From Actinomadura sp. KC216 (GTDB lineage: Bacteria > Actinomycetota > Actinomycetes > Streptosporangiales > Streptosporangiaceae), in assembly GCF_004348535.1 (NCBI RefSeq), contig NZ_SMJX01000045.1:1-39643 (forward strand): a stretch of DNA of 39,643 nucleotides, written 5' to 3'. A program made the translations under genes and the position numbers. Positions 2,435-34,540 of this stretch are shown in pieces. Every line of letters starts with the position of its first letter. Within the stretch, counting starts at the first letter, position 1. A model generated the notes under the pieces. It saw only the letters and a list, made by a program, of their open reading frames with translations, searched no databases and was not told where the DNA came from.

Positions 2435-3294
2435 GGCGTGTCTCAAAGTGGGATGAGCGGCATGTCCAGCGCCCGACATAGTGAGGTTTCCGGTACAGGA
2501 GTCATCGACCAAGAAAACCCTGAGTCCCGGAGACCTCGTGGCCACCCTAGCGGTGACGAGGCGGTTCGACCTGACCGATGAGCAGTGGGCGATCCTGGAG
2601 CCGCTGCTGCCGGTGCCCACGCGACCGGGTCGACCGTCCAAGTGGATAAAACGCCAGCTCATCGATGGGATCCGCTGCCGGTGCGGACCGGTGCGCCGTG
2701 GCGGGACGTGCCGGAGTGCTACGGCTCCTGGCACGCGGTCTACGCGTTGTTTCGCCGCTGGCAGCGCGCCGGGGCCTGGGCGCGCATCCTGGCGGCCCTG
2801 CAGACCCGGGCGGATGCGTCCGGGCTGATCTGCTGGGAGGTGAACGTGGATTCCACGGTAGTGCGGGCGCACCAGCATGCCGCCGGGGCCCGGCGGCGTG
2901 GTGATCTGCAGCGTGAGCCGCCCGCGGGTGCGGCCGCCGAGCCGGACGATCATGCGCTGGGCCGTTCCCGTGGCGGGTTGTCGACCAAGGTGCATCTGGC
3001 CTGTGAGCAGGGCCAGCGGCCGTTGTCGCTGGTGGTGACGGCCGGGCAGCGTGGGGACGCCCCGCAGTTCGAGGCGGTGACGGCCCAGATCAGTGTCGCC
3101 CGGCCGGGACGGGGCCGCCCACCGGCCTTCGACCCGATCGACTACCGCGGCGACCACGCCGTCGAGTGCGGCATCAACCGACTCAAACGCCACCGGGCGG
3201 TGGCGACCAGGTACGACAAGCTCTGCGTCCGCTACCAGGCAGTCCTTGAGATCACCGCCATCAACGAATGGCTCCACCTTCTTCGAGACACGAC
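2435..3294 (+). mobile_element. IS5-family insertion sequence, damaged copy
   Basis: The element is bounded by imperfect inverted repeats. The left end (2431-2448) reads CTAGGGCGTGTCTCAAAG, and the reverse complement of the right end (3281-3298) reads CTAGGTCGTGTCTCGAAG, 16 of 18 matching. CTAG at 2431-2434 and 3295-3298 probably represents the duplicated target, as is usual for IS427-type IS5 elements. The total of about 860 bp and the transposase are typical of the group, but the copy is internally damaged. A lone end with the same sequence as the right terminus lies at 5961-5978. Confidence 0.8.
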
Positions 3295-3298
3295 CTAG
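2481..3298 (+). pseudogene. IS5-family transposase, frameshifted and internally deleted
   Basis: The N-terminal part reads [18 protein letters not shown] and [16 protein letters not shown], then the frame is lost near 2676-2682 and continues one frame over as [22 protein letters not shown]5-group elements can use programmed frameshifting, but here a single missing base in a conserved [14 protein letters not shown] stretch is the simpler reading. The first catalytic Asp is present in [12 protein letters not shown] and the final Glu region in [18 protein letters not shown]. The segment between, normally DRVLADKAYSS and about 50 residues, is missing: [11 protein letters not shown] runs straight into PAFDPIDY. 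The second catalytic Asp is therefore lost and the protein should be inactive. The stop TAG lies in the flanking CTAG. Confidence 0.75.
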
Positions 3299-7279: not shown

Positions 7280-7817
7280 TCCCGTCCCGGATGTCGCCCG
7301 CGCCGACGGGCGCCCCCCGGGTTGTCGGCACCGCGTCCGGCGAAGTGGCGCTGTCATTCGGTGGTGCTCCGCGGCCGCCCGGCGACGGCGGTGCGGGGGA
7401 TGCCGGACGCAGGAGCCGCATGTGTTCGTCACTAGGTATCGCCACCATGTAGGACGTGGTCAGAGCACTGGTGGATTCCTCCTGGCGGCCATGACCGTGT
7501 GCGAGTGCGAGGCAGTGACGTCGCAAGGAGGACGGGTGTGGTTCGTCCGGTGCCGTCGTCGGTGGATGCGGGGGAGCGTGTCACCTTCTGGGTTCTGCGG
7601 CGGTTTCCGGCCGGGGCGCGGCGGCGGAGGTAGGTGTTCATGATCCAGCCCTAGCGGGCGCGGGCGGATCGCAGGCGAACCGGCACGCCGCCGACCCGCG
7701 GGGAGACGGAGTGGAGCAGTAGTGCCAGCTTCAGATCGTCAAGCCGGACGATGGCGGTGAACGGATAGGTGTTTCTCCCCATCGTGTCTTATTGCGACTT
7801 CCTTGCAACTGCGACCT
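7280..7817. other. Intergenic stretch with no recognisable gene
   Basis: No frame here shows convincing codon bias and family features over more than about 50 residues. The only hint of translation is a 31-codon frame from GTG 7538 to TAG 7631-7633, preceded by a strong AAGGAGGA at 7525-7532 and reading VRPVPSSVDAGERVTFWVLR. This could be the beginning of a truncated gene. The transcription start for the riboswitch-led operon should lie near the right end, but no clear promoter stands out. Confidence 0.4.
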
Positions 7818-7984
7818 GTGTCACCATTGCGGGGTAGGCGACGGCGGACGAGGAAGCCGGTGCGATTCCGGCGCGGTCCCGCCACTGTGATCGGCGAGCG
7901 GATCCCGACGACGCCACTGCCCGCGCGAGCGGGCGGGAAGGCCGGGACGAGCATCGACCCGAGAGCCAGGAGACTCACGCGGTC
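7818..7984 (+). promoter_or_regulatory. Cobalamin (B12) riboswitch
   Basis: The stretch has the conserved blocks of the cobalamin aptamer in order: AGGAAGCCGGTGCGATTCCG at 7850-7869, GCGGTCCCGCCACTGTGA at 7871-7889, GCCACTGCCCG at 7912-7922 paired with CGGGAAGGC at 7934-7942, and GAGAGCCAGGAGACTCA at 7961-7977. It ends about 50 nt before the substrate-binding protein ATG at 8034. In the linker, CTCCTC can pair with the GAGGAGAG of the ribosome binding site, and GGGGCGGATCTCCCC can form a hairpin. Control is therefore likely translational, shutting the operon off when B12 is plentiful. The aptamer is clear; the switching mechanism is inferred. Confidence 0.9.
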
Positions 7985-8033
7985 GCCTCCTCGACAGGGC
8001 TGGGGCGGATCTCCCCAGAGAGGAGAGGGCAGC

Positions 8034-9101
8034 ATGCCCAGAGGCACAACATGCCCGGTCACGCGCCGGACGGCCGCATGCCGGGCCGCCGCCGTACGCT
8101 CCGGTACTCGTATGCGGGCAGCGGTGTTGGCGCTGTTCGTCGCGGTCGTGCTGGTCTGGGTCTCCGGATGCGGCGGCGACACGGGACGTGCCGGAGACGA
8201 CCGCGCGGGAGCGGCGCCGTCCGGTTTCCCGGCGACGGTGGCCAACTGCGGGGTGACGACCACCTACCAGCGCCCGCCGAAGCGTGCGGTGTCGCTGAAC
8301 CAGCACGCGACCGAGGTGATGCTCGCTCTCGACCTGGAGAAGTCGATGGTCGGGACGGGCTACCTCGATGACCGGATCCTCCCGGAGTTCCGGGCCGCTT
8401 ACGACCGGGTGAAGGTGCTGTCGAAGGAGTATCCCTCCTACGAGGCGCTGCTTGAGGCCGAGCCCGACTTCGTCTACGGCGGATGGGCGAGCACATTCGA
8501 GGACGGCCGCAGCCGGGCCGCGTTGAAGAAGGCCGGGATCGACACCCACCTCAATATCGAGGAATGCCCCAAGGGCCCGGTGACCATGGCCACGGTCGAG
8601 GAGGAGATCCGGACCGTCGCCAAGATCTTCGGCGTCCCGGACCGGGCCGAGCGGCGCATCGCCGCGCTGCGCGCCGTCCTGGAGCGGGTCAAGGCGCGGC
8701 TCGCCGAGCCGGCTCCCGCCGCGACCCCCGTCAGGGTCGCCGTCTACGACAGCGGCGACAAGACCGTGTACACCGCGGGCGGCGCCGGGATCGGCAACGA
8801 GATCATCCGGCTGGCGGGCGGGACCAACCTGTTCTCCGACGTGAGCAAGGCCTACGGGGACGTCTCGTTCGAGCAACTGGCCGCGCGGGCGCCCGAGGCC
8901 ATCGTCATCTACGACTACGGAGACCAGCCCGCCGAGGACAAGAAGAGATTCCTGCTGTCCAGCCCGGCGCTGAAGGACGTCCCCGCCATCAGGAACAAGC
9001 GGTTCGCGGTCCTGCCGCTGTCGTCCACGGTGACCGGCGTCCGAGCGGCCTCCGCTGTCGAGTCGCTGGCCCGCCAGCTGCACCCGGACCGGTTCGGATG
9101 A
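8034..9101 (+). CDS. ABC transporter substrate-binding lipoprotein (PF01497, BtuF/FepB-like)
   Basis: The 355-residue product starts at ATG 8034, preceded by GAGAGGAGAGG. After a basic N-terminus there is one hydrophobic stretch, AAVLALFVAVVLVWVSGC, with a VSGC lipobox (Cys 45), so the mature protein is lipid-anchored outside the membrane. The fold follows the periplasmic-binding family PF01497: KRAVSLNQHATEVMLALDLE, PSYEALLEAEPDFVYGGWAS, a long helix linking two lobes, then ARAPEAIVIYDYG. This family binds cobalamin or ferric siderophores. The B12 riboswitch favours a corrinoid or cobalt-related cargo; the nearby FhuF-like reductase equally allows a metal chelate. The stop overlaps the permease start by ATGA. 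Confidence 0.88.
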   Translation: MPRGTTCPVTRRTAACRAAAVRSGTRMRAAVLALFVAVVLVWVSGCGGDTGRAGDDRAGAAPSGFPATVANCGVTTTYQRPPKRAVSLNQHATEVMLALDLEKSMVGTGYLDDRILPEFRAAYDRVKVLSKEYPSYEALLEAEPDFVYGGWASTFEDGRSRAALKKAGIDTHLNIEECPKGPVTMATVEEEIRTVAKIFGVPDRAERRIAALRAVLERVKARLAEPAPAATPVRVAVYDSGDKTVYTAGGAGIGNEIIRLAGGTNLFSDVSKAYGDVSFEQLAARAPEAIVIYDYGDQPAEDKKRFLLSSPALKDVPAIRNKRFAVLPLSSTVTGVRAASAVESLARQLHPDRFG

Positions 9102-10189
9102 CCGGCCTCGCCGAGCCACGCGTCTCCGGCGGACGGGCGCCGGTCGCCGCCGCCCACCGCGCCCGCACCCGCCTTCCCTATCCGCTGGTCCTGGCGCTGT
9201 TCGGCGGGCTGGTGCTGGTGGCGGGCACGGCGGGGATCGCCGCGGGCTCGGTGCGGATCCCGCCCGGCCAGGTCTGGGGCATCCTGCTCCACCAGCTTCA
9301 TCCCGCCCTGGCGGACCCGGCCTGGTCACCGGTCCGCGAGACGATCGTGATGGACGTCCGGCTGCCCCGCGTGCTGCTGTGCGCGGTGGTCGGAGCGGGC
9401 CTGTCGGTCTGCGGGATGGCCCTGCAAGCCGTGGTCCGCAACCCCCTGGCCGACCCCATGCTGCTGGGCGTGTCCTCGGGCGCGATGGTCGGCGCGGTGC
9501 TCGTGGTGGTGTTCCCGGTCGCGTGGTTCGGCATGTTCTCCATGCCGCTGGCCGCCTTCGCGGGCGCGCTACTGGCGTTGGTGCTGGTGTACTTCCTGGC
9601 CCGCTCCGGCGGACGGATGACCACGGTGCGGCTGGTGCTGGCGGGCGTCGCCACCGCCGAGGTGCTCACGGCGGTCGCGAGCTACCTGGTCATCACCTCC
9701 GACGACCCCCGCGCCGCCGAATCGGCGCTGCGCTGGATGCTCGGCGGCCTGGCCGGTACCACCTGGACGCTGCTGTGGCTCCCCGCCGCCGTGGTCCTCG
9801 CGGGCACGGCGGTGCTGCTCGGGCTGTCCCGTCCGCTCAACCTGCTGCTGGCCGGGGAGGAGGCCGCCGCGGCCCTGGGCCTGGACGTGCACCGCTTCCG
9901 CGGGGCGCTGTTCACGCTGGTCGCCCTGATGATCGGCGCGATCGTCGCGGTCAGCGGCTCCATCGGGTTCGTCGGGCTGATCATGCCGCATGCGGTGCGG
10001 CTGCTCGTCGGCGCCGACCACCGCCGCGCCCTGCCCGCCGCGGCCCTGCTCGGCGCCGGGTTCCTGATCCTCGCCGATCTGGCCGCGCGGACCCTGATCA
10101 GCCCCGAGGAGGTCCCCGTCGGCATCCTCACCGCTCTGGTCGGCGGCCCCTTCTTCCTCCTCCTGATGCGGCGGAAGGCGGCGCGGTGA
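9098..10189 (+). CDS. FecCD-family ABC permease (BtuC/FepD-like)
   Basis: The 363-residue protein has about ten hydrophobic segments and the FecCD landmarks: RLPRVLLCAVVGAGLSVCGM, ALQAVVRNPLADPMLLGVSS with the conserved NPLA-x-P-x-(L/I)-G, GALFTLVALMIGAIVAVSGS, and IGFVGLIMPHAVRLLVGADH, the GFVGL-x-(V/I)PH-x-(A/V)R motif. It forms the homodimeric membrane channel used by B12 and siderophore importers. The start ATG 9098 overlaps the upstream stop, and the gene overlaps the ATPase start by GTGA, so the three genes should be translationally coupled. A single permease gene, rather than an FepD/FepG pair, is more like BtuCD than many siderophore systems. Confidence 0.92.
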   Translation: MTGLAEPRVSGGRAPVAAAHRARTRLPYPLVLALFGGLVLVAGTAGIAAGSVRIPPGQVWGILLHQLHPALADPAWSPVRETIVMDVRLPRVLLCAVVGAGLSVCGMALQAVVRNPLADPMLLGVSSGAMVGAVLVVVFPVAWFGMFSMPLAAFAGALLALVLVYFLARSGGRMTTVRLVLAGVATAEVLTAVASYLVITSDDPRAAESALRWMLGGLAGTTWTLLWLPAAVVLAGTAVLLGLSRPLNLLLAGEEAAAALGLDVHRFRGALFTLVALMIGAIVAVSGSIGFVGLIMPHAVRLLVGADHRRALPAAALLGAGFLILADLAARTLISPEEVPVGILTALVGGPFFLLLMRRKAAR

Positions 10190-11001
10190 CCATGGACGCG
10201 CCGACCACGGGCACCGGCCCCCCGGCCGGGACGCTGCGGGCCGAGGAGGTCTCCGTCGTCATCGACGGCCGGACCCTGGTGGACGCCGTCTCGCTGACCG
10301 CGGCGCCGGCAGAGATCGTCGGGCTCGTCGGCCCCAACGGCGCCGGGAAATCCACCCTGCTGCGCACCTTCTACCGCGCGCGGCGCCCCACCTCGGGACG
10401 GGTCCTGCTGGACGGCGAGGACGTCTGGCGCATGCCCGGCAAACACCTCTCCAGGCGCCTGGCCGCCGTCCTCCAGGAGACGCCCGGCGACTTCGAGCTG
10501 ACCGTGTACGACGTCGTGGCGATGGGCCGCACCCCGCACAAGCGCGCCTTCCAGGGCGACGACACCGGTGACCGCGAGATCATCACCGGATCGCTGGCGG
10601 AACTGGAGGCCGCGCACCTGGTCGACGCGCCGTTCGATCGCCTGTCCGGAGGCGAGAAGCAGCGCGTCCTCATCGCCCGCGCGCTGGCCCAGCGAACCGG
10701 GATCCTGGTCCTGGACGAGCCGACCAACCACCTGGACCTGCGGCACCAGATCGACGCCCTCCGTCTCGTCCGCCGCCTCGGCGTCACCGCGGTCGTCGCC
10801 CTGCACGACCTCAACCTGGCCGCCTCGTTCTGCGACCGCCTCCACGTCCTGGACGCCGGCCGGACCGTCGCGACAGGGCCACCGGGTGACGTGCTCACGC
10901 CGGAACTGCTGGCCGACGTCTACCGCGTCGACGCCGAGGTCGCCGAGCATCCCCGCAGCGGCCACCCGCAGATCACCGTTCTTCCCCCAGGACCCATCTG
11001 A
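10186..11001 (+). CDS. ABC transporter ATP-binding protein (BtuD/FepC-like)
   Basis: This is a complete nucleotide-binding domain of 271 residues: Walker A GPNGAGKST, Q-loop AAVLQETPGD, signature LSGGEKQRVLIARALAQ, Walker B ILVLDEPTNHLD and the switch His in VVALHDLNLAA. The sequence between (LTVYDVVAMGRTPHK) is typical of ATPases paired with FecCD permeases. GTG 10186 overlaps the permease stop and has GGAAGG eight bases upstream; ATG 10192, two codons later, is possible. It should drive uptake through the permease just upstream. A 109-nt gap follows before the FhuF-like gene, with a 14-bp direct repeat but no evident terminator. Confidence 0.93.
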   Translation: MTMDAPTTGTGPPAGTLRAEEVSVVIDGRTLVDAVSLTAAPAEIVGLVGPNGAGKSTLLRTFYRARRPTSGRVLLDGEDVWRMPGKHLSRRLAAVLQETPGDFELTVYDVVAMGRTPHKRAFQGDDTGDREIITGSLAELEAAHLVDAPFDRLSGGEKQRVLIARALAQRTGILVLDEPTNHLDLRHQIDALRLVRRLGVTAVVALHDLNLAASFCDRLHVLDAGRTVATGPPGDVLTPELLADVYRVDAEVAEHPRSGHPQITVLPPGPI

Positions 11002-11036
11002 GAAATGGCGAGCCGATGACCCGGATATCGCGTGGC

Positions 11037-11075
11037 TGAACTCCGAAAACCCGGCGGAAGGTGAACTCCGAAAAC
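11037..11075. repeat. 14-bp direct repeat between ATPase and FhuF-like genes
   Basis: TGAACTCCGAAAAC occurs at 11037-11050 and again at 11062-11075, 25 bp apart start to start. It lies in the 109-nt gap after the ATPase gene. It may be a regulator half-site pair or a simple local duplication; nothing in the sequence decides between them. Confidence 0.5.
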
Positions 11076-11110
11076 GTCTGCCGGTTGCCGCGGAAAGGAG
11101 GACCGCATCC

Positions 11111-11851
11111 ATGACGCGTCTCTCGCCCGTCTCGCCCGACACCGTCATGGCGGCGCTCGCCGAGGCCGCCTCGCTGGGCGGCTTCTTCGCGATCGCCGTG
11201 GGAGGCCCGGAGACCGGATGGCGACCGGCCGACGACGCCTACGCCGACGGCATGCAGGACCTGGTCGACGCCACCGCGCTGCGCTACGGCGCCGCCGAGA
11301 TGCGGATCGCGGCCTCGATCACGCAGCTCGGGCATGCGGCGCGGCTGTGGTCACCGGTCCTGTACGGTGCGGCCGCGCACGGCATCGTCCTCGACCTGGG
11401 AGAACTGCGGCGGGCCGAGAGCGGTCCCGCACTCGGTGTCCCGGCCCCGCGAGGCCACCGCGTACCCGCGCCGGACGGGCGCCTCGCGGAGGCGCTCTAC
11501 CAGGCGGTGGTCGTCCGGCACTTGGACCGCCTGGCGGCGGGCCTGCGCGTCAAGGTCGCCGCCGGCCTGCTGTACGGCAACGCGGCCTCGGCCCTGGCCG
11601 AGGCCGCCCGCGCGACCCTGACCGCCCGCCCGGAACTGCACGCCGGCCTCGCCGAGCTCACCGGGGAGCTGCTGAGCACTGGCCGTCTCTCCGGGACCGG
11701 GCGGATCATTTCGGCCCGCCTGGGCTTCCGGCGCCGCAGCTGCTGCCTGTACTACCGGGTTCCGGACGGGGAGAAGTGCGAGGACTGCTCATTGGCGAAG
11801 CAGGCCGGCGATCAAGGAATTGCGGAAAAGAACGCGCTCGGCCCCCGTTGA
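11111..11851 (+). CDS. FhuF-like (2Fe-2S) siderophore-iron reductase family protein
   Basis: The 246-residue product starts at ATG 11111 with GGAGG at 11097-11101. The N-terminal two thirds are helical and alanine-rich (ADGMQDLVDATALRYGAAEM, then ASITQLGHAARLWSPVLYGA) as in FhuF. The C-terminus carries RRSCCLYYRVPDGEKCEDCS, that is CC-x10-C-x2-C, the FhuF [2Fe-2S] ligand pattern. In the family this cluster reduces ferric iron in a siderophore so that the metal can be released in the cytoplasm. Under a B12 riboswitch the substrate could instead be a cobalt(III) or corrinoid complex; that is inference. It sits between the importer and the peptide/YcaO genes, linking uptake with the RiPP part. 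Confidence 0.8.
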   Translation: MTRLSPVSPDTVMAALAEAASLGGFFAIAVGGPETGWRPADDAYADGMQDLVDATALRYGAAEMRIAASITQLGHAARLWSPVLYGAAAHGIVLDLGELRRAESGPALGVPAPRGHRVPAPDGRLAEALYQAVVVRHLDRLAAGLRVKVAAGLLYGNAASALAEAARATLTARPELHAGLAELTGELLSTGRLSGTGRIISARLGFRRRSCCLYYRVPDGEKCEDCSLAKQAGDQGIAEKNALGPR

Positions 11852-11889
11852 CCGCTAAGCCGATATCCACTTACGCTACTTGCAACTAG

Positions 11890-11914
11890 ATCGCAGGTGC
11901 GCAGAACTTGCGAT
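11890..11914. promoter_or_regulatory. Inverted repeat upstream of the small peptide gene
   Basis: ATCGCA at 11890-11895 and TGCGAT at 11909-11914 form a perfect 6-bp inverted repeat with a 13-nt spacer, 40 nt before the start of the 43-residue peptide gene. The gap between the FhuF-like gene and the peptide gene (102 nt) is unusual for this otherwise tight operon, so a separate promoter or operator for the peptide is possible. No -35/-10 pair can be assigned with confidence. Confidence 0.3.
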
Positions 11915-11953
11915 AGAGGGTGCATGTTCTGTGCGCTCCGAAAGGAGACCGCC

Positions 11954-12085
11954 ATGGCACACCACGGATTCGCCGAGCCGGAGGAGCCCCAGAAGGGGCT
12001 GAAGTCCCACACCCCCGCGGTGGACGCCCCGTTCGAGTGGCGCGAGGACCGCGAAACCGAGCAGGCCGAGGAGGCCGAGAACTGA
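11954..12085 (+). CDS. Candidate RiPP precursor peptide, 43 residues
   Basis: ATG 11954 has AAAGGAG at 11941-11947, one of the best ribosome binding sites in the operon. The product starts MAHHGFAEPEEPQKGLKSHT, continues PAVDAPFEW and ends in a strongly acidic tail, REDRETEQAEEAEN. There is no Cys; the only residues a cyclodehydratase could heterocyclise are Ser18, Thr20 and Thr35. The middle segment K14-W29 is the best guess for a core, with the acidic end as a follower; an N-terminal core at MAHHGF is an alternative. No signal peptide or double-Gly site is present. Position just before the YcaO gene, small size and the hairpin after it support the precursor role. No described RiPP class is recognised. 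Confidence 0.65.
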   Translation: MAHHGFAEPEEPQKGLKSHTPAVDAPFEWREDRETEQAEEAEN

Positions 12086-12107
12086 CCGACTACTGACCGG
12101 GTGTCGG

Positions 12108-12131
12108 GGGAGCGGCCCGCGGGCCGCTCCC
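12108..12131. terminator. Perfect 24-nt palindrome after the peptide gene (attenuator or mRNA-stabilising hairpin)
   Basis: The halves GGGAGCGGCCCG (12108-12119) and CGGGCCGCTCCC (12120-12131) are exact reverse complements, giving a GC-rich stem of up to 10-11 pairs. It starts 22 nt after the peptide stop and lies before the YcaO start. There is no T-tract, so it is not a standard intrinsic terminator. Such hairpins behind RiPP precursor genes commonly raise precursor mRNA over enzyme mRNA; that role is inferred. Confidence 0.6.
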
Positions 12132-12175
12132 TCACCCCTCAACCGGGCGGGACGGGAAGGAGCGATGAGGAGCCG

Positions 12176-13594
12176 GTGAAAGCCCAGATCGTGCGCGGCG
12201 ACCGATCGGGTCTCGTCGAGCGGGTCGAGCTCGACCGGCCGCGGGTGCGTCCCGTCCCGTCGTGCGTCTCCTACAGCGCCTGGGCGTCGTCGCATCCCCA
12301 GCACGCGCCATGGACGGTCGACACCGTCACCGGCGGTGCCGCGCTGGCCGATCACGAGGCCGCCCGCCGGGCCGCCATAGGCGAGGCCGTCGAACGCTAC
12401 TGCGCGAACGTCGTGCCTCCCCGGCTTCCCACCGGATCGTTCACGGCGCTCCGCCGAGCGGGCGCGGACGCGGTCGACCCGCGCGAGTTCGCGCTGTACT
12501 CGGCCGCGCAGTACGCACACCGCGGCTTTCCCTTCGTCGCGCTGACACCGGGCCTGGAGATCGCCTGGGCACCGGGCCGCACGCTCGATGGCGACGACGA
12601 GATCCTCGTGCCCGCCTCCCTGGTCTACGTCAACTACTTCCGCGGCGAGCGCGCCGCCGAGCCGCCCACCAACTACCCGTTGCTCGCCGGGACGGCCGCT
12701 GGGACGAGCGCGCTGGAGGCGACCCTTCCCGCGCTGGAAGAGCTGTTGGAACGCGACGCGGTCACGCTCTGGTGGCTCAGCGGAGCCCCCGCGACCGCCC
12801 CCGCCTTCGAGCCGGACGCGAACGGGCCCCTGGCGACCGCGCTCACCGAGGCCGAGCGGGCCGGGCTGCGCGTGTCCCTGCTGCGCATCCCCTCGACCTT
12901 CGAGGTGCAGGTCGCCGGAGTCTTCGTCGAGGACCCGGCGCGCCGGCTGGTCGCCTTCGGCAGCGCCTGCCGCCCGGCGCCGGAGGCGGCGACCGCGAAG
13001 GCGTTTACCGAGGCCCTCGGCATGCACGAGGCGGGCCTGGACCTGCTGGACGCCGGCGGACCGTTCTGGACAGCCGTCCGCGCAGGGAAGATCACCGGCC
13101 GGCCGTACCGAGCCCATCGCAGTGACCGCGCCTACCTCGACGGCTTCCGCCCGGATCTCCGCGACGTCAACGACGTGCGGCTGCATCTCCAGCTCTACCT
13201 CGACCCGCGGGCGCAGGACGGGCGGCTGGCCCGGCTCCGCCACCCCAGGCCCGCTCACCCAGCACCCGCTCATCCCGCCCCCGCTCACCCCGGGTCCGCC
13301 CGCGCCGAGCCTGCCGCCGTTCCGGCCGGGCCGCACCAGCGGCTCGGCCGCTACCTGAGCCTGCTCGACGACCAGGGGCTGCGCGCCGTCGTAGTCGACC
13401 TCACGACCCGCGAGGCCGCGGAGGCCGGGCTGAGCGTCGTCCGCGTCATCGTGCCGGGCCTGTACTCCAACGCCCCCGCGGCGTTCCCTTTCCTCGGCGG
13501 CGAGCGGCTCTACCGAGAGCCGCCGGCGCGGGGCTGGACGCCCGGCCCGCTCACCGAGGACGGCCTCGTCCGCGACCCCCTCCCGTTCTCCTGA
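12176..13594 (+). CDS. YcaO-domain protein (RiPP cyclodehydratase-like)
   Basis: The 472-residue protein has YcaO landmarks in order: SYSAWASSHPQHAPW, then AARRAAIGEAVERYCANVVP (the EA-x-ER ATP-site helix), GTAAGTSALEATLPALEELL and ERDAVTLWWLSG (the E-x2-ERDA-x-(A/T)LWW block shared with azoline cyclodehydratases), and TAKAFTEALGMHEAGLDLL. YcaO enzymes phosphorylate a backbone amide and insert an oxygen, sulfur or nitrogen nucleophile. No E1-like/ThiF partner domain is fused or encoded nearby. A His/Pro/Ala-rich repeat linker (about residues 355-385, HPAPAHPAPAHPG) splits the C-terminal part. The end is DPLPFS, only a partial match to the PxPxP tail. GTG 12176 follows GAGGAG/GGAAGGAG; the exact start is uncertain. 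Confidence 0.85.
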   Translation: MKAQIVRGDRSGLVERVELDRPRVRPVPSCVSYSAWASSHPQHAPWTVDTVTGGAALADHEAARRAAIGEAVERYCANVVPPRLPTGSFTALRRAGADAVDPREFALYSAAQYAHRGFPFVALTPGLEIAWAPGRTLDGDDEILVPASLVYVNYFRGERAAEPPTNYPLLAGTAAGTSALEATLPALEELLERDAVTLWWLSGAPATAPAFEPDANGPLATALTEAERAGLRVSLLRIPSTFEVQVAGVFVEDPARRLVAFGSACRPAPEAATAKAFTEALGMHEAGLDLLDAGGPFWTAVRAGKITGRPYRAHRSDRAYLDGFRPDLRDVNDVRLHLQLYLDPRAQDGRLARLRHPRPAHPAPAHPAPAHPGSARAEPAAVPAGPHQRLGRYLSLLDDQGLRAVVVDLTTREAAEAGLSVVRVIVPGLYSNAPAAFPFLGGERLYREPPARGWTPGPLTEDGLVRDPLPFS

Positions 13595-13620
13595 CCCACC
13601 CCACCTGGAAGGAACGCCCC

Positions 13621-14643
13621 ATGCGTCTCGGGCTGGCCCTGGGCTACGGCGGAGAGCCGATCGAAGACGTGCTGCCGATCGTCGAGCACGCCGAACGCAT
13701 CGGCGTCGACTCGGTGTGGAGCGTCGAGGAGTACGGCCCCGACGCCGTCAGCGTCCTCGGATACCTCGCCGCCGTGACCGAACGCGTCAAGCTCGGCACC
13801 GCCGTCATGCAGATCCCCGCCAGAACCCCGGCGGCCACCGCGATGACCGCGATGACCCTGGACGTCCTGTCGAACGGACGCTTCCAGCTCGGTCTCGGAC
13901 TGTCGGTGCCCTGGATCGCCGAGGGCTGGCATGGGCAGCCCTACGCCCGCCCGCTCCAGCGCGTCCGCGAGTACGCCGAGATCGTCCGCAAGGCGGTCGC
14001 GCGGGACGAGCGCGTCCACCACGAAGGCGAGATATACCAGCTTCCCTACCATGGGCCCGGGTCCACCGGACGGGCACGGCCAGTCCGATCGGAGATGGAA
14101 CCGCTACGCTCGCGCATCCCGCTCTACCTGGGCGCCATCGGCCCGAAGAGCGTCGCGCTGGCGGGCGAGATCGCCGACGGCTGGCTGTCGGGAATGTACG
14201 CCCCCGAGCATGAGAAGGCCCTGACCCGTCCCCTCGACGAGGGAAGCCACCGGGGCGGGCGCGCTCCCGGCGACGTCAAGATCGCCCCGATCCTGTACGT
14301 GGCCCGCGCCGCGACGGCGGCCGAGGGGCGCGACGAGCTGCGCCCGCTGTTCGCGCACCTGATCGGCGCCGCCGGCGCAGGCGTCCGCAACACCTATTTC
14401 GACGTGGCCTGCCAGATGGGATACGAAGGCGCGGCCCACGACATCCGCGACCACCTCGCCGAAGGACGCAGGGACGACGCCGCCGCGGCAGTCCCCGGCA
14501 CGCTCCTCGACCAGGTCGCGCTCGCGGGGCCGCTCCCGGCGATCGTCGACCGGATCTCCGCCTGGAAGGACTCGCGCGTGGAAACCCTGATCCTCCTCAG
14601 CCGCGACACCGAACTGCTGGAAGCCGCGCAGGCCGCCCTGTGA
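13621..14643 (+). CDS. LLM-class (F420/flavin-dependent) oxidoreductase
   Basis: ATG 13621 follows GGAAGGA. The 340 residues make the luciferase-like TIM barrel typical of F420-dependent enzymes: MRLGLALGYGG, ERIGVDSVWSVEEYGPDAVS, RVKLGTAVMQIPARTPAATA, LDVLSNGRFQLGLGLSVPWI, EGWHGQPYARPLQRVREYAE, and IPLYLGAIGPKSVALAGEIA followed by DGWLSGM. In RiPP pathways enzymes of this class reduce or oxidise the peptide backbone or heterocycles. Lying between YcaO and the exporter, it is most simply a tailoring enzyme acting on the YcaO product. F420 rather than FMN is inferred from similarity to the actinobacterial group. Its stop overlaps the start of the MATE gene. Confidence 0.85.
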   Translation: MRLGLALGYGGEPIEDVLPIVEHAERIGVDSVWSVEEYGPDAVSVLGYLAAVTERVKLGTAVMQIPARTPAATAMTAMTLDVLSNGRFQLGLGLSVPWIAEGWHGQPYARPLQRVREYAEIVRKAVARDERVHHEGEIYQLPYHGPGSTGRARPVRSEMEPLRSRIPLYLGAIGPKSVALAGEIADGWLSGMYAPEHEKALTRPLDEGSHRGGRAPGDVKIAPILYVARAATAAEGRDELRPLFAHLIGAAGAGVRNTYFDVACQMGYEGAAHDIRDHLAEGRRDDAAAAVPGTLLDQVALAGPLPAIVDRISAWKDSRVETLILLSRDTELLEAAQAAL

Positions 14644-15995
14644 CACCCGCGGAGCCCACCGGCGAAACCGCGCCCGCCCGGCCGGGCACCGGGATGCGGT
14701 CGATCTGGAAGCTCGCCCTCCCGCTGATGGTCGCCGGGCTCACCCAGATCTCGCTCAACGTCGTCGACACCATCCTGCTGGCCCGGCTCTCGACGAGCGC
14801 CCTCGGCGCGTTCGCCCTGGCCGCCCCCGTCTATCTGGTGGCGCTGGTCATCGTCCGCGGCTGGGCCACCGCCGTCCAGGTGAAGGTGGCCCAGCATCAC
14901 GGCGCGGGGCGTCGCGGGGAGGTCGCACAGGTCGTCCGGACCGGAGTACTTACCTCCGCGGCCGCCGGAGTCGCCGTGGGCGCTGCCCTGTACGTCACCG
15001 CCGTACCCGTGCTGACCGTCTTGGGCGCCGACGACGACCTGATCGGCCCGGGCGCCGGCTACCTGCGCGTGCTCGCCGTCGCCGTCCCGTTCGCGGCGGT
15101 CTCCTTCACCCTGCAGGGCGCCTGCGCGGGCATCGGCGCGACCCGTGTCTCGATGTACACCGCGCTGCTGGCCAACGCCGTCAACCTGCCCCTCGGCCTG
15201 CTGCTGATCTTCGGCGCGGACCTCGGCGTGCACGGCGCCGCGGCCGCCACTCTCGCCGCCACCGCCGCCGGCACCGTCTACCTGCTCGCCTACGCCAGAA
15301 CCAGGTTCCCTCGCGTGCGGGCCGTCCCCGCCGCCACCGCCCAGATCACCCGCGGCCTGTGGCGAATCGGATGGCCGGAGATGTGCGCGATGGGCATCGG
15401 CTACTTCAACGAGGCGCTGCTCGCCGCGTTCGCCGCCCGGATGAGCCCCCACGACCTGGCCGCCTACCGCATCGTCGACAACCTCACGCTCGTGCTGTTC
15501 ACCGTCCTGACCAGCGCCGCCACGGCCATCACCATCCTTGCCGGACAGGCACTCGGCGCGGGCGACCGCGACCGCGCAGAAGCGTGGCGGCGCGCCGGGC
15601 TGCGGCTGCTGTCGGTCCTGCTCCTGGTCCCCGCCGCCGCCGTGTTTCTAGGCGGCGGCCCGCTGACCTCCCTGATCGCCTCCGATCCGGCGGTCGCCGA
15701 CCGTGCCTGGTCGGCCATACCTCTGGCGCTGTTCAGCCTGGCGCCCCTGCTGCCCGCCCTCGCCTACGGGGCCGCGCTGCGCGCCGCGGGCGACACCCGC
15801 TCGGTCATGGTCGCCTCCGTTGTCGGTGACTACGCCGCGCTGATCCCGCTCGCCTGGCTGCTCGGCGTCCATCTGGGCCTCGGCCTGCCCGGCCTCTACC
15901 TCGCCTGGACGGCGTTCGGGGCCCTCTACTCCCTGCTACTCCGCCGCCGCCATCGCCAGGCCCGCCGGTCCCGCACTCAACCCGCGCAGACCTAA
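14640..15995 (+). CDS. MATE-family efflux transporter
   Basis: GTG 14640 overlaps the upstream stop (GTGA). The 451-residue protein has about twelve hydrophobic segments in two pseudo-symmetric halves: SIWKLALPLMVAGLTQISLN, VVDTILLARLSTSALGAFAL and, in the second half, IGWPEMCAMGIGYFNEALLA and AFAARMSPHDLAAYRIVDNL. The order and the WKLALP-x-(M/I) opening match MATE (Na+- or H+-coupled) exporters. As the last gene of the operon it probably exports the modified peptide, giving a cycle of synthesis, export and re-import through the FecCD-type system. The array of CRISPR repeats begins only 18 nt after its stop. Confidence 0.9.
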   Translation: MTPAEPTGETAPARPGTGMRSIWKLALPLMVAGLTQISLNVVDTILLARLSTSALGAFALAAPVYLVALVIVRGWATAVQVKVAQHHGAGRRGEVAQVVRTGVLTSAAAGVAVGAALYVTAVPVLTVLGADDDLIGPGAGYLRVLAVAVPFAAVSFTLQGACAGIGATRVSMYTALLANAVNLPLGLLLIFGADLGVHGAAAATLAATAAGTVYLLAYARTRFPRVRAVPAATAQITRGLWRIGWPEMCAMGIGYFNEALLAAFAARMSPHDLAAYRIVDNLTLVLFTVLTSAATAITILAGQALGAGDRDRAEAWRRAGLRLLSVLLLVPAAAVFLGGGPLTSLIASDPAVADRAWSAIPLALFSLAPLLPALAYGAALRAAGDTRSVMVASVVGDYAALIPLAWLLGVHLGLGLPGLYLAWTAFGALYSLLLRRRHRQARRSRTQPAQT

Positions 15996-16013: not shown

Positions 16014-16165
16014 GTGCTCCCCGCGCACGCGGGGATGGTCCCCAGACCAGGAACTTGATCATGACGGGTTCCGGGTGCTCCCCGGCGTACGCGGGGATGG
16101 TCCCTTGAAGCCGGGAACGGCGAAGACGACGTCGGCGTGCTCCCCGCGTATGCGGGGATGGTGCC
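16014..16165 (+). CRISPR. Orphan type I-E-like CRISPR mini-array, three repeats and two spacers
   Basis: Repeats lie at 16014-16042 (29 nt), 16075-16104 (30 nt, one inserted base) and 16137-16165 (29 nt, 3' end altered). All have the start GTGCTCCCCG and the core GCGGGGATGGT of actinobacterial type I-E repeats, with a short CCCCGC/GCGGGG hairpin. The two spacers (16043-16074, 16105-16136) are both exactly 32 nt. The degenerate last repeat implies the leader side is at the left, but only 18 nt separate the first repeat from the MATE stop codon, so no leader fits. No cas gene is present in the window. The array is probably a stranded relic. Confidence 0.88.
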
Positions 16166-28912: not shown

Positions 28913-30043
28913 TCATGTCAGGGGGACGTTCCATGCGTCGTACGCGTAGACCCAGTCGGCGTCCGCGGTGGACTTGAGCCAGGTGTTGCCGCGCGAGCCG
29001 ATCTGGATCCGGCCGGTTCGCGGCAGCCGGGCGGCCTCGTAGGCCTTGAGCGCGCCCTCGACGTCGCCGGGGCGTCCGGCGACCGCGCGTGCGAGGACGA
29101 CGCCGTCCTCGATGGCCATCGCCGCGCCCTGGGCCATGAACGGCATCATCGGGTGCGCCGCGTCGCCGAGGAGGGTGGCTCTGCCCTCCGACCACCGCGG
29201 CAGCGGATCGCGCACGTAGAGCGCGGACTTGAGCACCGAGTCGCAGGCGTCGAGCAGAGCGCGCGCCTCCGGGTGGAACGTGTCGTAGCTCGCTCGCAGT
29301 TCCTCGACGTCGCCCGGCGCCGTCCACGACTCCTCCGTCCAGCTCTCCTGGGGCGTGGTCGCGAAGATGAAGGTGTCCTTGCCCCGGTTGAGCGGGAAGG
29401 TGACGATCTGCGTCGCCGGGTCCGGTCCCCACCACTTGGTGAACGCGCCGAGGTTCGGCACGTCCAGCCGGTCGGCGGGGACGACGGCGCGGTACGCGAC
29501 GACCCCGGTGAACTCCGGGTTCTCCTTGCCGAAGAGCACGGTGCGCACGCTGGAGTGGATGCCGTCCGCGCCGACCGCGGCGTCGACCTCGGCGCCCGCG
29601 CCGTGCTCGAAGGCCAGCCGGACCGGTGCCCCGGCGTCCGGCCGCCCGTCGAGCGCGGTCAGCCGGTGGCCGTGCCGGATCACGTCCGGCGGCAGCGCCT
29701 GCTCCAGGGCGGTGAGCAGGTCGGCGCGGTGGATGGTCAGCTGGGGAGCGCCGTACTTCCGCTCGGCCGTGTCGCCCATCTCCAGCCGCGAGGTCTCCTC
29801 ACCGGTGTCCCAGGTGCGGCTGATCCGGTGCGTGGGCCGGGCGGCGGTCTCCCGGACGGCGTCGCCGACGCCGAGCCCGTCGAGGGCGCGGACGGCGTTG
29901 GGGGTGAGGTTGATGTCCGCCCCCACATAGCCGAACTCCGGGGCCTGCTCGAACACCGTGACCTTGTGGCCGAGGCCGCGGAGGGCGATGGCGGCGGTGA
30001 GGCCGCCGATGCCGCCGCCGACGATGCCGATGTGCTGGCTCAA
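28913..30043 (-). CDS. FAD-dependent aromatic monooxygenase, 6-hydroxynicotinate 3-monooxygenase (NicC)-like
   Basis: The start is TTG 30043, with AAGGAG five bases upstream; the longer frame reads antisense DNA. In the 376 residues, QHIGIVGGGIGGLTAAIALR is the FAD Rossmann motif, then EYVGADINLTPNAVRAL-like text, VGADGIHSSVRTVLFG (the DG motif) and RATLLGDAAHPMMPFMAQGA followed by AMAIEDGVVLARA (GD motif). The end, RGNTWLKSTADADWVYAYDA, closely resembles the C-terminus of Pseudomonas NicC. NicC converts 6-hydroxynicotinate to 2,5-dihydroxypyridine with loss of CO2. Here the substrate may be a related hydroxy-aromatic acid; exact specificity is unproven. It is the last gene of the eight-gene operon, 14 nt after the dehydrogenase. 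Confidence 0.8.
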   Translation of the reverse strand: MSQHIGIVGGGIGGLTAAIALRGLGHKVTVFEQAPEFGYVGADINLTPNAVRALDGLGVGDAVRETAARPTHRISRTWDTGEETSRLEMGDTAERKYGAPQLTIHRADLLTALEQALPPDVIRHGHRLTALDGRPDAGAPVRLAFEHGAGAEVDAAVGADGIHSSVRTVLFGKENPEFTGVVAYRAVVPADRLDVPNLGAFTKWWGPDPATQIVTFPLNRGKDTFIFATTPQESWTEESWTAPGDVEELRASYDTFHPEARALLDACDSVLKSALYVRDPLPRWSEGRATLLGDAAHPMMPFMAQGAAMAIEDGVVLARAVAGRPGDVEGALKAYEAARLPRTGRIQIGSRGNTWLKSTADADWVYAYDAWNVPLT

Positions 30044-30057
30044 CTGTTCTCCTTGGT

Positions 30058-31560
30058 TCAGTCCGCCCAGGCGATCGGGCCGGACATGCCCATGTAGATG
30101 CTCTTCTGCCGCTGGTAGGCGCGGATGGCGCCGAGCCCCTTCTCCCGCGACGAGCCGCTGTCCTTCACGCCGCCGAACGGGGTGGCGATGGACAGCTGCT
30201 TGTAGGTGTTGATCCAGACCGTCCCGGCCTCGATCGCGCGTGCCAGCCGCCATGCCCGCGGGAAGTCACGGGTCCAGATGCCGCAGGCCAGCCCGTACGC
30301 CGTGTCGTTGGCCGCGGCCACCAGGTCGTCCTCGTCGCGGAAGCGCAGCGCGACCAGGACCGGCCCGAAGATCTCCTCGCGCACCACCCGCGCGCCGGGC
30401 CCGAGCCCCTCGATGACGGTCGGACGCAGGTAGCTTCCCGCCTGGAGAGACGGGTCGGAGGGCCGCGCCCCGCCCGCCCGCACGACACCGCCTGCGGCGA
30501 CGCCGTCCGCGATGTACCCCTCGACGGAGTCCCGGTGCGACGCCGTGATGAGCGGGCCGAGCTGGGTGCCCTCGGCGCGGGGATGGCCGACGCGCAGCCG
30601 GTCGGCCTTCTCCGCGATGCGCGAGACCACGTCGTCGTACACCGCGTCGTGGACGAACAGCCGCGACCCCGCGATGCAGGACTGCCCCTGCGAGCTGAAC
30701 ACGCCGAACAGGACGCCGTTGACCGCCACGTCCAGGTCGGCGTCGGGCAGGACGATCGTGGGCGACTTGCCGCCGAGCTCCAGCGACGTCGTCTTCAGGC
30801 GGGTGGCCGCCGTCGCGGCCAGCGCCCGGCCGGTGCCGGTGCCGCCGGTGAACGACACGTGACCCACGCCCGGATGCTCCACGAGCGCCTGGCCGACCGT
30901 GCCGCCCGGCCCCGGGAGCACGCTCACCAGCCCCTCCGGCACACCGGCTTCGAGCAGCAGGGCCCCGAGTTCGAGCGCGAGGAGCGGCGTCCACGCCGCG
31001 GGCTTGACCACGACGGCGTTGCCCGCGGCCAGGGCGGGCGCGACCTTCTGCGCCTCGGACGCGATCGGGCTGTTCCAGGGGGTGATCGCGGCGACCACGC
31101 CGATCGGCTCGTGCACCGAGAAGGCGAGGTGGTCGCCCCTGGACGGCGGGATCGCCCCCTCCTGGCATTCCAGGACGGCGGCCACGTACCGGAACGTCCC
31201 GGCGGCGCTGGCGACGAGGGCGCGGGTCTCGGCGAGCGGCTTGCCGTTGTCGCGGCTCTGGAGGACCGCGAGCTGCTCGGCCCGTTCCTCGATCAGGTCC
31301 GCGGTGCGGACGAGGTAGCGGGCCCGCTGGTGGGGCAGCAGATCCCGCCAAGCCCGCGCCGACCGGGCGGCCTCACCGCGTCGCACGGCGGTGTCGACGT
31401 CGACGGGTGCCGCCGCGGGCAGGCGGGCGACGACCGTGCCGTCGGCGGGGTCGTGGGAGACGAGCTCGGCGCCGTGGCCTTCGACCCACTCCCCCCCGAC
31501 GAGGATGCGGCCCGCCGGGGCGAGCCGGGATCCGGTGGATTGGACGAGGGGGTCGGTCAC
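30058..31560 (-). CDS. NAD(P)-dependent aldehyde dehydrogenase
   Basis: The 500-residue enzyme starts at GTG 31560, overlapping the stop of the ThDP enzyme gene. All family landmarks are present: PWNSPIASEAQKVAPALAAG with Asn163, SFTGGTGTGRALAATAATRL, LELGGKSPTIVLPDADLD with the general base Glu261, GQSCIAGSRLFVHDAVYDDV with the catalytic Cys295, and EEIFGPVLVALRF. The closest style is the betaine-aldehyde/hydroxymuconic-semialdehyde group. In this operon it would oxidise an aldehyde formed by ring cleavage or by the decarboxylase encoded just upstream. A much longer frame reads on through the upstream gene antisense to its codons and was rejected. Confidence 0.92.
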   Translation of the reverse strand: MTDPLVQSTGSRLAPAGRILVGGEWVEGHGAELVSHDPADGTVVARLPAAAPVDVDTAVRRGEAARSARAWRDLLPHQRARYLVRTADLIEERAEQLAVLQSRDNGKPLAETRALVASAAGTFRYVAAVLECQEGAIPPSRGDHLAFSVHEPIGVVAAITPWNSPIASEAQKVAPALAAGNAVVVKPAAWTPLLALELGALLLEAGVPEGLVSVLPGPGGTVGQALVEHPGVGHVSFTGGTGTGRALAATAATRLKTTSLELGGKSPTIVLPDADLDVAVNGVLFGVFSSQGQSCIAGSRLFVHDAVYDDVVSRIAEKADRLRVGHPRAEGTQLGPLITASHRDSVEGYIADGVAAGGVVRAGGARPSDPSLQAGSYLRPTVIEGLGPGARVVREEIFGPVLVALRFRDEDDLVAAANDTAYGLACGIWTRDFPRAWRLARAIEAGTVWINTYKQLSIATPFGGVKDSGSSREKGLGAIRAYQRQKSIYMGMSGPIAWAD

Positions 31561-33200: not shown

Positions 33201-33236
33201 GGTGTCTCTCCTGTCGGGGTTCGCATCGGTTTCCGG

Positions 33237-34025: not shown

Positions 34026-34033
34026 GGGGCGGG

Positions 34034-34540
34034 TCAGTCCCGCAAGACGCCGTGCATGGCGGAGGTCTCGGGGTAGGTCGGCACCTGCGGCTTCCGCGTG
34101 CCGATGATCACGCAGAAGAGGGCGTCGGTGTCCCCGTTGTTCTTCAGGCTGCGCGGCGTGCCCGGCGGGACCACGATCATGTCGCGGTAGCCGAGCGTGC
34201 GCTTCTCCACCTGGCCGTCCCGGTGGATGCCCACCTCGATCTCGCCTTCGAGCACGAAGAAGGCCTCTTCGGCGTCGTGGTGGGTGTGCTCGGGGCCCTC
34301 CGCGCCCGGCGGCAGCAGCATGTTGGAGAAGGTGAAGCCCTGCGACGGGATCGTGCGGCGGTCGCCCTCGTGATTGCCGGTGGCTCCGGAGCCGACGTAC
34401 CGGATCTGCGCGCGGCGGAACTGGTCGCCGGCCTTCGCCTGGAAGCCGAGGGTGTCCCAGTCCTCGTGGCGCGTGGCCTTGGTGAGGATGAGGGAGTCGG
34501 TGAAGGCGGCGAGGTCGGAGTCCTCGTATCGCAGGGTCAT
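34034..34540 (-). CDS. Cupin-domain protein
   Basis: The 168-residue product starts at ATG 34540, overlapping the hydrolase stop by ATGA. A single cupin barrel is seen: GFTFSNMLLPPGAEGPEHTH, HDAEEAFFVLEGEIEVGIHR, DMIVVPPGTPRSLKNNGDTD, ALFCVIIG. Cupin motif 1 is well kept: G-x5-HTHHDAEE-x-FFVLEGE supplies the His-His-Glu metal ligands. Motif 2 (PPGTPRSLKN) has no usual His, so the metal site may have one ligand less. Small cupins in aromatic catabolic operons act as dioxygenases, isomerases or decarboxylase helpers; which applies here cannot be said. Confidence 0.82.
   Translation of the reverse strand: MTLRYEDSDLAAFTDSLILTKATRHEDWDTLGFQAKAGDQFRRAQIRYVGSGATGNHEGDRRTIPSQGFTFSNMLLPPGAEGPEHTHHDAEEAFFVLEGEIEVGIHRDGQVEKRTLGYRDMIVVPPGTPRSLKNNGDTDALFCVIIGTRKPQVPTYPETSAMHGVLRD

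What the first reader, a model, noticed from the sequence alone, without database searches (positions are those of the whole stretch)
7818..15995. A cobalamin-riboswitch-led RiPP locus with its own importer, FhuF-like reductase and exporter
Seen: a clear B12 aptamer, then substrate-binding lipoprotein, FecCD permease and ATPase (overlapping starts), FhuF-like [2Fe-2S] protein, 43-residue peptide, YcaO, LLM oxidoreductase and MATE exporter, all on one strand. Known: B12 riboswitches normally control B12 import, synthesis or B12-independent isozymes; YcaO plus a small peptide and tailoring enzyme is the signature of RiPP synthesis. Inference: the modified peptide may be made when B12 is scarce, exported by the MATE protein, bind a corrinoid, cobalt or another metal, and be taken back through the FecCD system and released by the reductase, in effect a peptide metallophore or corrinophore. 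I know of no described RiPP class with this wiring.
Basis: partly seen in the sequence, partly recalled or inferred. Interest (0 to 1): 0.92.

Follow-up and report, generated by a model that had tools for sequence, protein, structure and literature searches.

The report
Likely metal-scavenging peptide gene cluster
A soil bacterium related to Actinomadura carries a conserved gene set that probably makes a small modified peptide to capture scarce nickel or cobalt, with peptide production apparently controlled by nickel and uptake by vitamin B12.

Summary
The anatomy is confirmed: cobalamin riboswitch (7800-7996), SBP/FecCD/ATPase importer, FhuF-like protein, 43-aa peptide, SagD-type YcaO, F420-type LLM enzyme and MATE exporter. 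The peptide is a real gene with relatives in Actinomadura, Streptomyces, Streptosporangium, Spongiactinospora and Nonomuraea (HTPAVDxxFxW). The interpretation changes. The riboswitch's conserved 3' hairpin abuts the first gene's RBS, so it probably controls the importer or FhuF-like gene, not the peptide. The peptide has its own promoter overlapping TTGCRA-N5-TYGCAA, close to the published box of Nur, the nickel-responsive Fur-family repressor. A model of this operator also finds sites before sodF, nikA-like and cbiM genes in these genomes (cbiM in the host), and the host has a Nur orthologue. A sister group with the same peptide core has the box but, in cis, neither upstream riboswitch nor FhuF-like gene. 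In A. spongiicola the locus lies beside cobN/cobO/cobB. Best reading: a ribosomally made nickel/cobalt metallophore, produced when nickel is low, whose importer and putative Co(III)-releasing reductase are gated by B12. Regulation is well supported by sequence; metal binding is inferred. It lies outside the streptamidine clade, but may show what such importer-linked YcaO peptides do.

The parts
7792..7808 (+). Nur-box-like operator TTGCGA-CTTCC-TTGCAA at the 5' edge of the riboswitch
   Evidence: 0 mismatches to TTGCRA-N5-TYGCAA; same place in L001 and L003 and in L163 and L165; model R1 hit in own genome E 0.0016 (this site was one of the 18 the model was built from)
7800..7996 (+). Cobalamin riboswitch aptamer (RF00174)
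   Evidence: 88.3 bits
8000..8030 (+). Conserved hairpin CTGGGG-CGGATC-TCCCCAG abutting the RBS: probable translational expression platform
   Evidence: like sequence in L001, L002, L003, L005, L006, L009 and, as far as printed, L007; no U-run in the window; L006 has a U-run further downstream
8034..9101 (+). Substrate-binding lipoprotein (Peripla_BP_2)
   Evidence: PF01497; AlphaFold model pLDDT 85, nearest 4n01/4mlz
9098..10189 (+). FecCD permease
   Evidence: PF01032 4.3e-95
10192..11001 (+). Importer ATPase
   Evidence: PF00005
11111..11851 (+). FhuF-like protein with C-terminal CCx10CxxC motif; putative reductase
   Evidence: PF11575 over cut-off; motif kept in 20 of 21 aligned rows, own included, altered in decayed L087
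11848..11877 (+). Promoter-like TTGACC-N18-TACGCT of the peptide gene
   Evidence: read; similar elements before other peptide genes (by eye). The consensus scan did not flag it
11880..11917 (+). Nur-box-like operator (TTGCAA-CTAGA-TCGCAG) with a second, weaker set of half-sites
   Evidence: R1 hit E 1.6e-4, best in own genome (this site was one of the 18 the model was built from)
11954..12085 (+). RiPP precursor peptide, 43 aa
12107..12131 (+). G+C-rich hairpin after the peptide stop, no U-run; hairpin-like sequences at this place in other loci (by eye)
12176..13594 (+). YcaO (SagD-type), standalone here, with an N-terminal extension in some relatives
   Evidence: TIGR03604 over cut-off; longer forms in L003, L006, L009, L011
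13621..14643 (+). LLM-class F420-dependent oxidoreductase
   Evidence: TIGR03559 341.4 over 335
14640..15995 (+). MATE exporter
   Evidence: TIGR00797 over cut-off

Best explanation
The locus makes, exports and re-imports a ribosomally synthesised nickel/cobalt metallophore. (1) When intracellular nickel is low, Nur releases the operator at the peptide promoter, and the 43-aa precursor and then YcaO, LLM and MATE are expressed (operator: shown; Nur binding: inferred). (2) YcaO, with the LLM flavo/F420 enzyme, modifies the backbone around the invariant His-Thr-Pro to make a chelating site (inferred; an imidazole-oxazoline or an amidine is the guess). (3) MATE exports the product (inferred from family). 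(4) The SBP/FecCD/ATPase importer, and with it or apart from it the FhuF-like protein, are made when B12 is low, because the riboswitch masks the RBS of the first gene (riboswitch shown; translational mode inferred from the conserved hairpin). (5) The imported Co complex, which air turns into inert Co(III), is reduced by the FhuF-like protein to release Co(II) for CobN (inferred; it would explain why, within the RiPP loci, riboswitch and FhuF-like gene come and go together, and why the nickel-only sister group has neither in cis).
For: Operator: 17 of 22 peptide loci have a box with at most 1 mismatch within 110 bp, against 0 of 20,000 GC-matched windows of 90 control stretches; 30 group-3 stretches (526 kb, some overlapping) have none. 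It is close to the Nur consensus tTGCaa-N5-ttGCAA given in PMC3919588. Model R1 hits outside the RiPP loci, all 16 with E up to 0.21: sodF 4, nikA-like 2, cbiM-cbiQ 1 (own genome), TsaD paralogue 3, FecB-like SBP 2, transposase 1, unclear 3; sodF and nikABCDE are known Nur targets. The host has a Nur orthologue, 161.8 bits to 3EYY against 57.5 for the next. Importer: in 13 of 13 intact group-1 genomes searched against 7 of 29 congeners without the peptide; a riboswitch within 0.6 kb upstream of 27 of 29 such SBPs. In RiPP loci riboswitch and FhuF-like gene co-occur in cis: 13 loci with both, 10 with neither, none mixed. Cobalt: in A. spongiicola the locus is beside a chelatase-type gene, cobO, cobB and cobN; cobN in 24 of 25 genomes. 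Broken peptide genes with importer and riboswitch kept (L087, L088, L175) fit piracy of a public good.
Against: No metal binding shown. The importer also occurs without the peptide (7 of 29 congeners), and eight riboswitch-led importer stretches (L164-L168, L170, L171, L173) have no FhuF-like gene beside them, so riboswitch and FhuF-like gene are not coupled outside the RiPP loci and the importer may have another cargo. Fold search cannot tell the SBP's cargo: heme, Ni-His, siderophore and B12 binders all match. The FhuF-like protein matches FhuF only at its C-terminus and its model finds no confident fold match. Streptamidine, from a distantly related cluster, bound none of seven metal ions tested and the mutant had no phenotype (PMC8442711). 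At the riboswitch the box is found only in five Actinomadura loci (5' edge), L088 (-77) and L174 (-47); 16 of the 20 riboswitches have none. L003's peptide has no good box (4 mismatches), L074's has 3. The window's own upstream neighbours that were scanned are not B12 genes. R1 was built from RiPP-locus sites, so its hits there are circular. Loci are related, so the p-values are not independent.
Confidence: 0.55

Rival explanations
1. Nickel-only RiPP metallophore (both groups); the riboswitch-led importer is an ordinary corrinoid or cobalt importer that sits next to it and has nothing to do with the peptide.
For: Peptide operator is Nur-type in both groups; the importer occurs without peptide in 7 of 29 congeners and in 5 of 8 sister-group genomes, apart from the group-2 RiPP locus in 4 of those 5; eight riboswitch-led importer stretches have no FhuF-like gene beside them; B12 importer models are among the weaker matches.
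Against: 13 of 13 intact group-1 genomes have it against 7 of 29; operon-like placement before FhuF-like gene and peptide in most group-1 loci.
Confidence: 0.17
2. Corrinophore: the modified peptide binds corrinoids and brings them back through the importer when B12 is scarce.
For: Riboswitch upstream of the importer or FhuF-like gene in 12 of 14 intact group-1 loci; the invariant His could be an axial ligand (inference).
Against: The peptide's own operator is of the nickel regulator's type; the sister group has the same peptide core without riboswitch; 24 of 25 genomes have cobN and so probably make B12.
Confidence: 0.12
3. The peptide is an antimicrobial or signal made under metal starvation rather than a chelator; the importer only scavenges metal or corrinoid.
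For: YcaO peptides are often antibiotics (general knowledge); MATE export; no self-evident ligand-rich core in the window's copy.
Against: Core is nearly invariant across genera; repeated linkage to two different FecCD-type importers, including L008, where a group-2-type importer lies upstream instead of the riboswitch-led one.
Confidence: 0.11
4. Independent genes that happen to be neighbours.
For: Importer can be in trans.
Against: Peptide, YcaO and LLM stay together in the 22 loci with an intact peptide that I read, in two well-supported clades; MATE in all 14 group-1 ones, as fragments in L073.
Confidence: 0.03

Closest known systems
Streptamidine (ami) family of actinobacterial YcaO RiPPs (PMC8442711)
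   Same: Small precursor, SagD-like YcaO, FecCD-type importer encoded beside it, authors suspected metal import, function unknown.
   Different: Separate YcaO clade (100/100); precursor has no ALV motif and its HMM does not find AmiA (AmiA scores -0.8 to 0.1, below the best of 2,000 shuffles at 8.6); LLM and MATE instead of AmiE and ABC exporters; one FecCD gene, not two; a FhuF-like gene and Nur-type boxes, neither found in L207-L216 and L218-L221. Riboswitches were not searched for in those loci.
Nur regulon of Streptomyces coelicolor (sodF, nikABCDE)
   Same: Box sequence nearly the same, spacing the same; box also before sodF and nikA-like genes in these genomes.
   Different: A RiPP gene as target is not mentioned in the passages read or in the listings of my literature searches.
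Methanobactin (copper RiPP metallophore; recalled)
   Same: Ribosomal metallophore with MATE export and dedicated re-import.
   Different: Pfam and NCBIfam scans of the eight genes show YcaO plus LLM and no methanobactin-type modifying enzyme; Ni/Co-type control, not copper.
B12-riboswitch-controlled cobalt/B12 importers (recalled)
   Same: Riboswitch before a FecCD-type importer.
   Different: Importer sits with a RiPP maker and a FhuF-like gene.

Membership tests
Cobalamin riboswitch RF00174 | Score over gathering cut-off over the whole model | tested here: met
   88.3 bits, positions 1-189
TOMM / SagD-type YcaO RiPP | YcaO over TIGR03604 cut-off | tested here: met
   281.9 over 219.25
TOMM / SagD-type YcaO RiPP | Azol(in)e or amidine in the product | not testable with these tools
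   needs mass spectrometry
Streptamidine family | Precursor with motif A or B sharing ALV | tested here: not met
   no ALV in 14 precursors; AmiA not found by the HMM. The paper notes 22 network members without the motifs, so this alone is not exclusive
Streptamidine family | YcaO inside the ami clade | tested here: not met
   groups 1+2 form a 100/100 clade apart from the six rows labelled ami (HLSATH seen in L207, L209, L211, L212; a variant in L221; none found in L214)
Streptamidine family | amiB, hydrolase amiC, nitroreductase-like amiE | tested here: not met
   none of the eight genes is named as a hydrolase or nitroreductase; amiB itself was not compared
Nur regulon | Nur box tTGCaa-N5-ttGCAA at the promoter | tested here: met
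   7792 exact to TTGCRA-N5-TYGCAA, 11880 one mismatch; that pattern widens the published consensus at two positions
Nur regulon | Nur orthologue in the genome | tested here: met
   L108, 161.8 bits to 3EYY
Nur regulon | Nur binding / Ni-dependent repression | not testable with these tools
   bench test
FhuF ferric-siderophore reductase | C-terminal [2Fe-2S] CCx10CxxC | tested here: met
   PF11575 36.6 over 20.5
FhuF ferric-siderophore reductase | Full-length FhuF model or fold | tested here: not met
   TIGR03951 26 bits under 63.85; no confident fold match
BtuFCD B12 importer | Equivalog cut-offs | tested here: not met
   BtuF 48 of 234, BtuC 269 of 461 bits
F420-0 transporter (TIGR03868/69/73) | Curated cut-offs | tested here: not met
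   178.5/392, 291/437, 282/372 bits
LLM F420 oxidoreductase TIGR03559 | Curated cut-off | tested here: met
   341.4 over 335

The most novel reading that the evidence does not exclude
A ribosomally encoded cobalt (and nickel) metallophore with two-input logic: nickel-controlled production and B12-controlled uptake and reductive Co(III) release; the sister group is the nickel-only version, and loss of riboswitch plus reductase marks the switch of metal. By extension, other FecCD-linked YcaO peptides of unknown function, streptamidine included, may be trace-metal or corrinoid carriers.
Probability: 0.38. Interest if true: 0.92.

Novelty: new variant of a known kind. Interest (0 to 1): 0.8.

Why it matters
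The listings of my literature searches (open-licence PubMed Central papers only; two searches listed 20 of 168 and 20 of 103 papers) showed no ribosomal metallophore for nickel or cobalt and no RiPP tied to Nur or a B12 riboswitch. If true, it gives a cargo and a logic to a class of importer-linked YcaO peptides whose function is open, suggests a way soil actinomycetes compete for the cobalt needed for B12, and supplies a reductase hypothesis for releasing kinetically inert Co(III), all testable with a few cultures.

Tried and rejected
Rejected: 'F420-0 transporter' and BtuFCD labels (all under cut-off). Tested and not supported: sequence homology of our precursor with AmiA; only a MAFFT alignment by eye suggests HLSATHSNALVENPF ~ SHTPA-VDAPF, and the HMM score is below shuffles. 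The generic promoter/terminator scan found nothing. Backgrounds for the operator: random windows of the same loci gave 84 of 20,000 with at most 1 mismatch, real sites included, and a GC-matched background was spoiled because it drew from loci that hold real sites; redone on control loci. SBP fold search does not discriminate cargo; FhuF-like fold search gave nothing confident. N-terminal extension of longer YcaOs: no NCBIfam match; Pfam not run on it. sodN of the host has no box with at most 1 mismatch, as expected if it is regulated indirectly (abstract passage of PMC3919588). FhuF-like genes were not searched genome-wide. Rfam was not run on the ami loci. No metagenome scan was allowed.


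Full report
1. Observation. The window lies in a genome of the same genus as Actinomadura spongiicola (G029 and the genome of L001 give the same coordinates). The importer's best NCBIfam names (F420-0 transporter, BtuC, corrinoid ATPase) are all under their cut-offs.

2. The peptide is real and conserved. A scan of genome contigs for the YcaO gave 41 loci. Two groups share the peptide: group 1 (L001-L009) and group 2 (L011, L012, L013, L023). Fourteen precursors, own included, align with 12 invariant residues (M1 A2 H3 E8 H19 T20 P21 A22 V23 D24 F27 W29). A peptide HMM search of 345 genomes of the order found 21 with a match, own included; 20 stretches around hits were read, and L217 was added from a Streptomyces search. 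Among six group-1 genes codon changes are 19/23/144 by position. Group 1 has MATE in all 14 intact loci, in L073 only as fragments. Group 2 (8 loci: L011, L012, L013, L023, L080, L084, L085, L086) has no MATE and no FhuF-like gene; downstream of LLM, five (L013, L023, L080, L084, L086) have a different SBP/FecCD/ATPase and further ABC ATPases, L011 and L012 show the SBP but no FecCD, and L085 is cut by the contig end. A 56-row YcaO tree gives group 1 (15 rows) 100/99, group 2 (7 rows) 100/99, both together 100/100. Streptomyces members inside group 1 suggest horizontal spread (inference).

3. Riboswitch. Of 14 intact group-1 peptide loci (window, L001-L009, L073, L074, L076, L217), 12 have the riboswitch upstream on the same strand; L004 and L008 do not (L004 had nothing even at E up to 1). 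Group 2: 0 of 8, though in L012 one lies divergently before an SBP. Its first gene is the SBP or, in L003, L006 and L076, the FhuF-like gene, never the peptide in these loci. The 3' flank carries a hairpin that abuts the RBS in the window and six relatives and, as far as printed, in L007; L006 has a U-run further down. This suggests translational control of the first gene; that is inference.

4. A second switch. Just upstream of the peptide lie a promoter-like TTGACC-N18-TACGCT and an inverted repeat TTGCRA-N5-TYGCAA. [quoted passage not shown] Best box within 110 bp of the 22 peptide starts: 0 mismatches 9, one 8, two 3, three 1, four 1. Control: 20,000 GC-matched windows of 90 other stretches gave none with 0 or 1 and 87 with 2. 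The window has exactly two boxes with at most one mismatch, 7792 and 11880; 30 group-3 stretches (526 kb, some overlapping) have none. The box overlaps the 5' edge of the riboswitch in five Actinomadura loci (window, L001, L003, L163, L165), and lies at -77 in L088 and -47 in L174; 16 of the 20 riboswitches have no box with fewer than 3 mismatches, and most of those in the stretches have none nearby.

5. Independent check that the box is Nur's. Model R1, built from 18 RiPP-locus operators, was run on 16 genomes; its hits at the RiPP loci are circular. I looked at all 16 hits outside the RiPP loci with E up to 0.21: Fe-SOD 4, nikA-like 2 (SBP family 5, which also holds peptide binders), CbiM/CbiQ 1 (own genome), TsaD paralogue 3 (one, L144, 90 bp before another cobalamin riboswitch), FecB-like SBP 2, transposase 1, unclear 3 (Pfam on one or two of each named kind, the rest by eye). 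Three to four chance hits would be expected. Nur represses sodF and nikABCDE (PMC7055735, passages). In L002 sodF with its s-SodF element and a box with one mismatch lie directly before the riboswitch. The host's L108 protein is a Nur orthologue next to ygfZ (by eye), as PMC4531530 describes for Nur (passages). Other riboswitch stretches of the host (L099-L103) have no box with at most one mismatch.

6. Importer and FhuF-like module. The same SBP family is in 13 of 13 intact group-1 genomes; in G349, G370, G317 and G352, where it is missing in cis, a copy elsewhere stands behind its own riboswitch. It is in 5 of 8 group-2 genomes, in all four genomes with a broken group-1 peptide gene (G027, G363, G098, G099; the last two also hold group-2 peptides), and in 7 of 29 congeners without the peptide (that all 29 were in the peptide search is inferred from handle numbers, as its list of negatives is cut, but one search shows no group-1 or group-2 YcaO in them). 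Fisher p: 3e-6 over all, 0.008 within the genus (4 of 4 against 7 of 29), without correction for kinship. 27 of 29 such SBPs have a riboswitch within 0.6 kb upstream; both exceptions are in G062. In the RiPP loci riboswitch and FhuF-like gene go together in cis (13 with both, including L175; 10 with neither). Outside them they do not: L163, L172 and L174 have both, L169 has a more distant FhuF-like gene, but L164-L168, L170, L171 and L173 have a riboswitch-led importer and no FhuF-like gene beside it. L008's genome keeps riboswitch-importer-FhuF elsewhere (L172). L009 has both importer types in tandem.

7. Decay. L082 (HMPAVD, no YcaO found nearby, importer in fragments), L087 (HTLAVD, frame lost, no YcaO), L088 (fragment) and L175 (leader and promoter gone) are broken peptide genes; L087, L088 and L175 keep riboswitch and importer, and G013 has importer and FhuF-like gene without peptide (L163). 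That is what cheating on a public good would leave, though other reasons are possible.

8. Cobalt. In A. spongiicola the locus is beside a chelatase-type AAA/VWA gene, cobO, cobB and cobN, back to back with the riboswitch; in G013 cobN lies close to the riboswitch-led importer. The window's own upstream neighbours that were scanned are not B12 genes. cobN is in 24 of 25 genomes searched (miss: G264, 63% complete; in G027 in three pieces).

9. Mechanism. Nur-type control says nickel; the B12 riboswitch says cobalt status; in the RiPP loci the FhuF-like gene follows the riboswitch. A Co chelate oxidises in air to inert Co(III) and would need reduction to give up its metal, while Ni(II) would not (general chemistry, recalled). 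So group 1 may be a cobalt(-nickel) version and group 2 the nickel version. Shown: genes, riboswitch, operators, co-occurrence. Inferred: Nur binding, peptide chemistry, metal, transport, reductase function.

10. Known relatives. The streptamidine paper (PMC8442711; sections 6, 7, 9 and passages read) describes YcaO peptides beside fecBCDE genes, suspected metal import, and found no metal binding and no phenotype. I found ami loci (L207, L209, L211, L212, L213 with HLSATH; L221 a variant). They form a separate YcaO clade and the precursors are not alike above chance. 'Riboswitch' has 0 occurrences in the paper's main text; its supplement was not open to me, so I cannot say whether group 1 or 2 is in its data set.

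11. Structure. SBP model pLDDT 85: nearest 4n01 and 4mlz, with heme, Ni-His, siderophore and B12 binders further down. FhuF-like model pLDDT 85: no match under E 0.3.

Noticed in passing
window 16014-16165: Three 29-nt repeats (GTGCTCCCCGCG..GCGGGGATGGTCCC) spaced 61-62 nt, a short CRISPR-like array just behind the MATE gene.
   Followed up: partly
window 2585-3298: IS4/5-type transposase, upstream of the locus.
   Followed up: no
window 28913-37106: FAD monooxygenase, TPP enzyme and glyoxalase/dioxygenase-type genes; could be an aromatic degradation cluster.
   Followed up: no
L046 / L104 (host contig C99): The host has a second YcaO locus of group 3 with a second YcaO and an SBP; no Nur box with at most 2 mismatches.
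   Followed up: partly
L144, L147, L150: TsaD (Gcp) paralogues preceded by the Nur-type box; in L150 divergent from an alanyl-tRNA synthetase-like gene (by eye). Possible metal-sparing paralogues.
   Followed up: no
L154, L156: FecB-like SBPs directly behind a Nur-type box, outside the RiPP locus, in two genomes with group-2 peptides.
   Followed up: no
L175 (G099 C11): YcaO, LLM and MATE frames present although the peptide gene has lost promoter and leader; the same genome keeps a group-2 peptide on C6.
   Followed up: partly
L003, L006, L009, L011: YcaO with a long N-terminal extension that has no NCBIfam match in the three tested (L003, L006, L011); the window's YcaO lacks it.
   Followed up: partly
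L014, L038: YcaO relatives on contigs binned as Holophagales and Lysobacterales MAGs; possible mis-binning or transfer.
   Followed up: no
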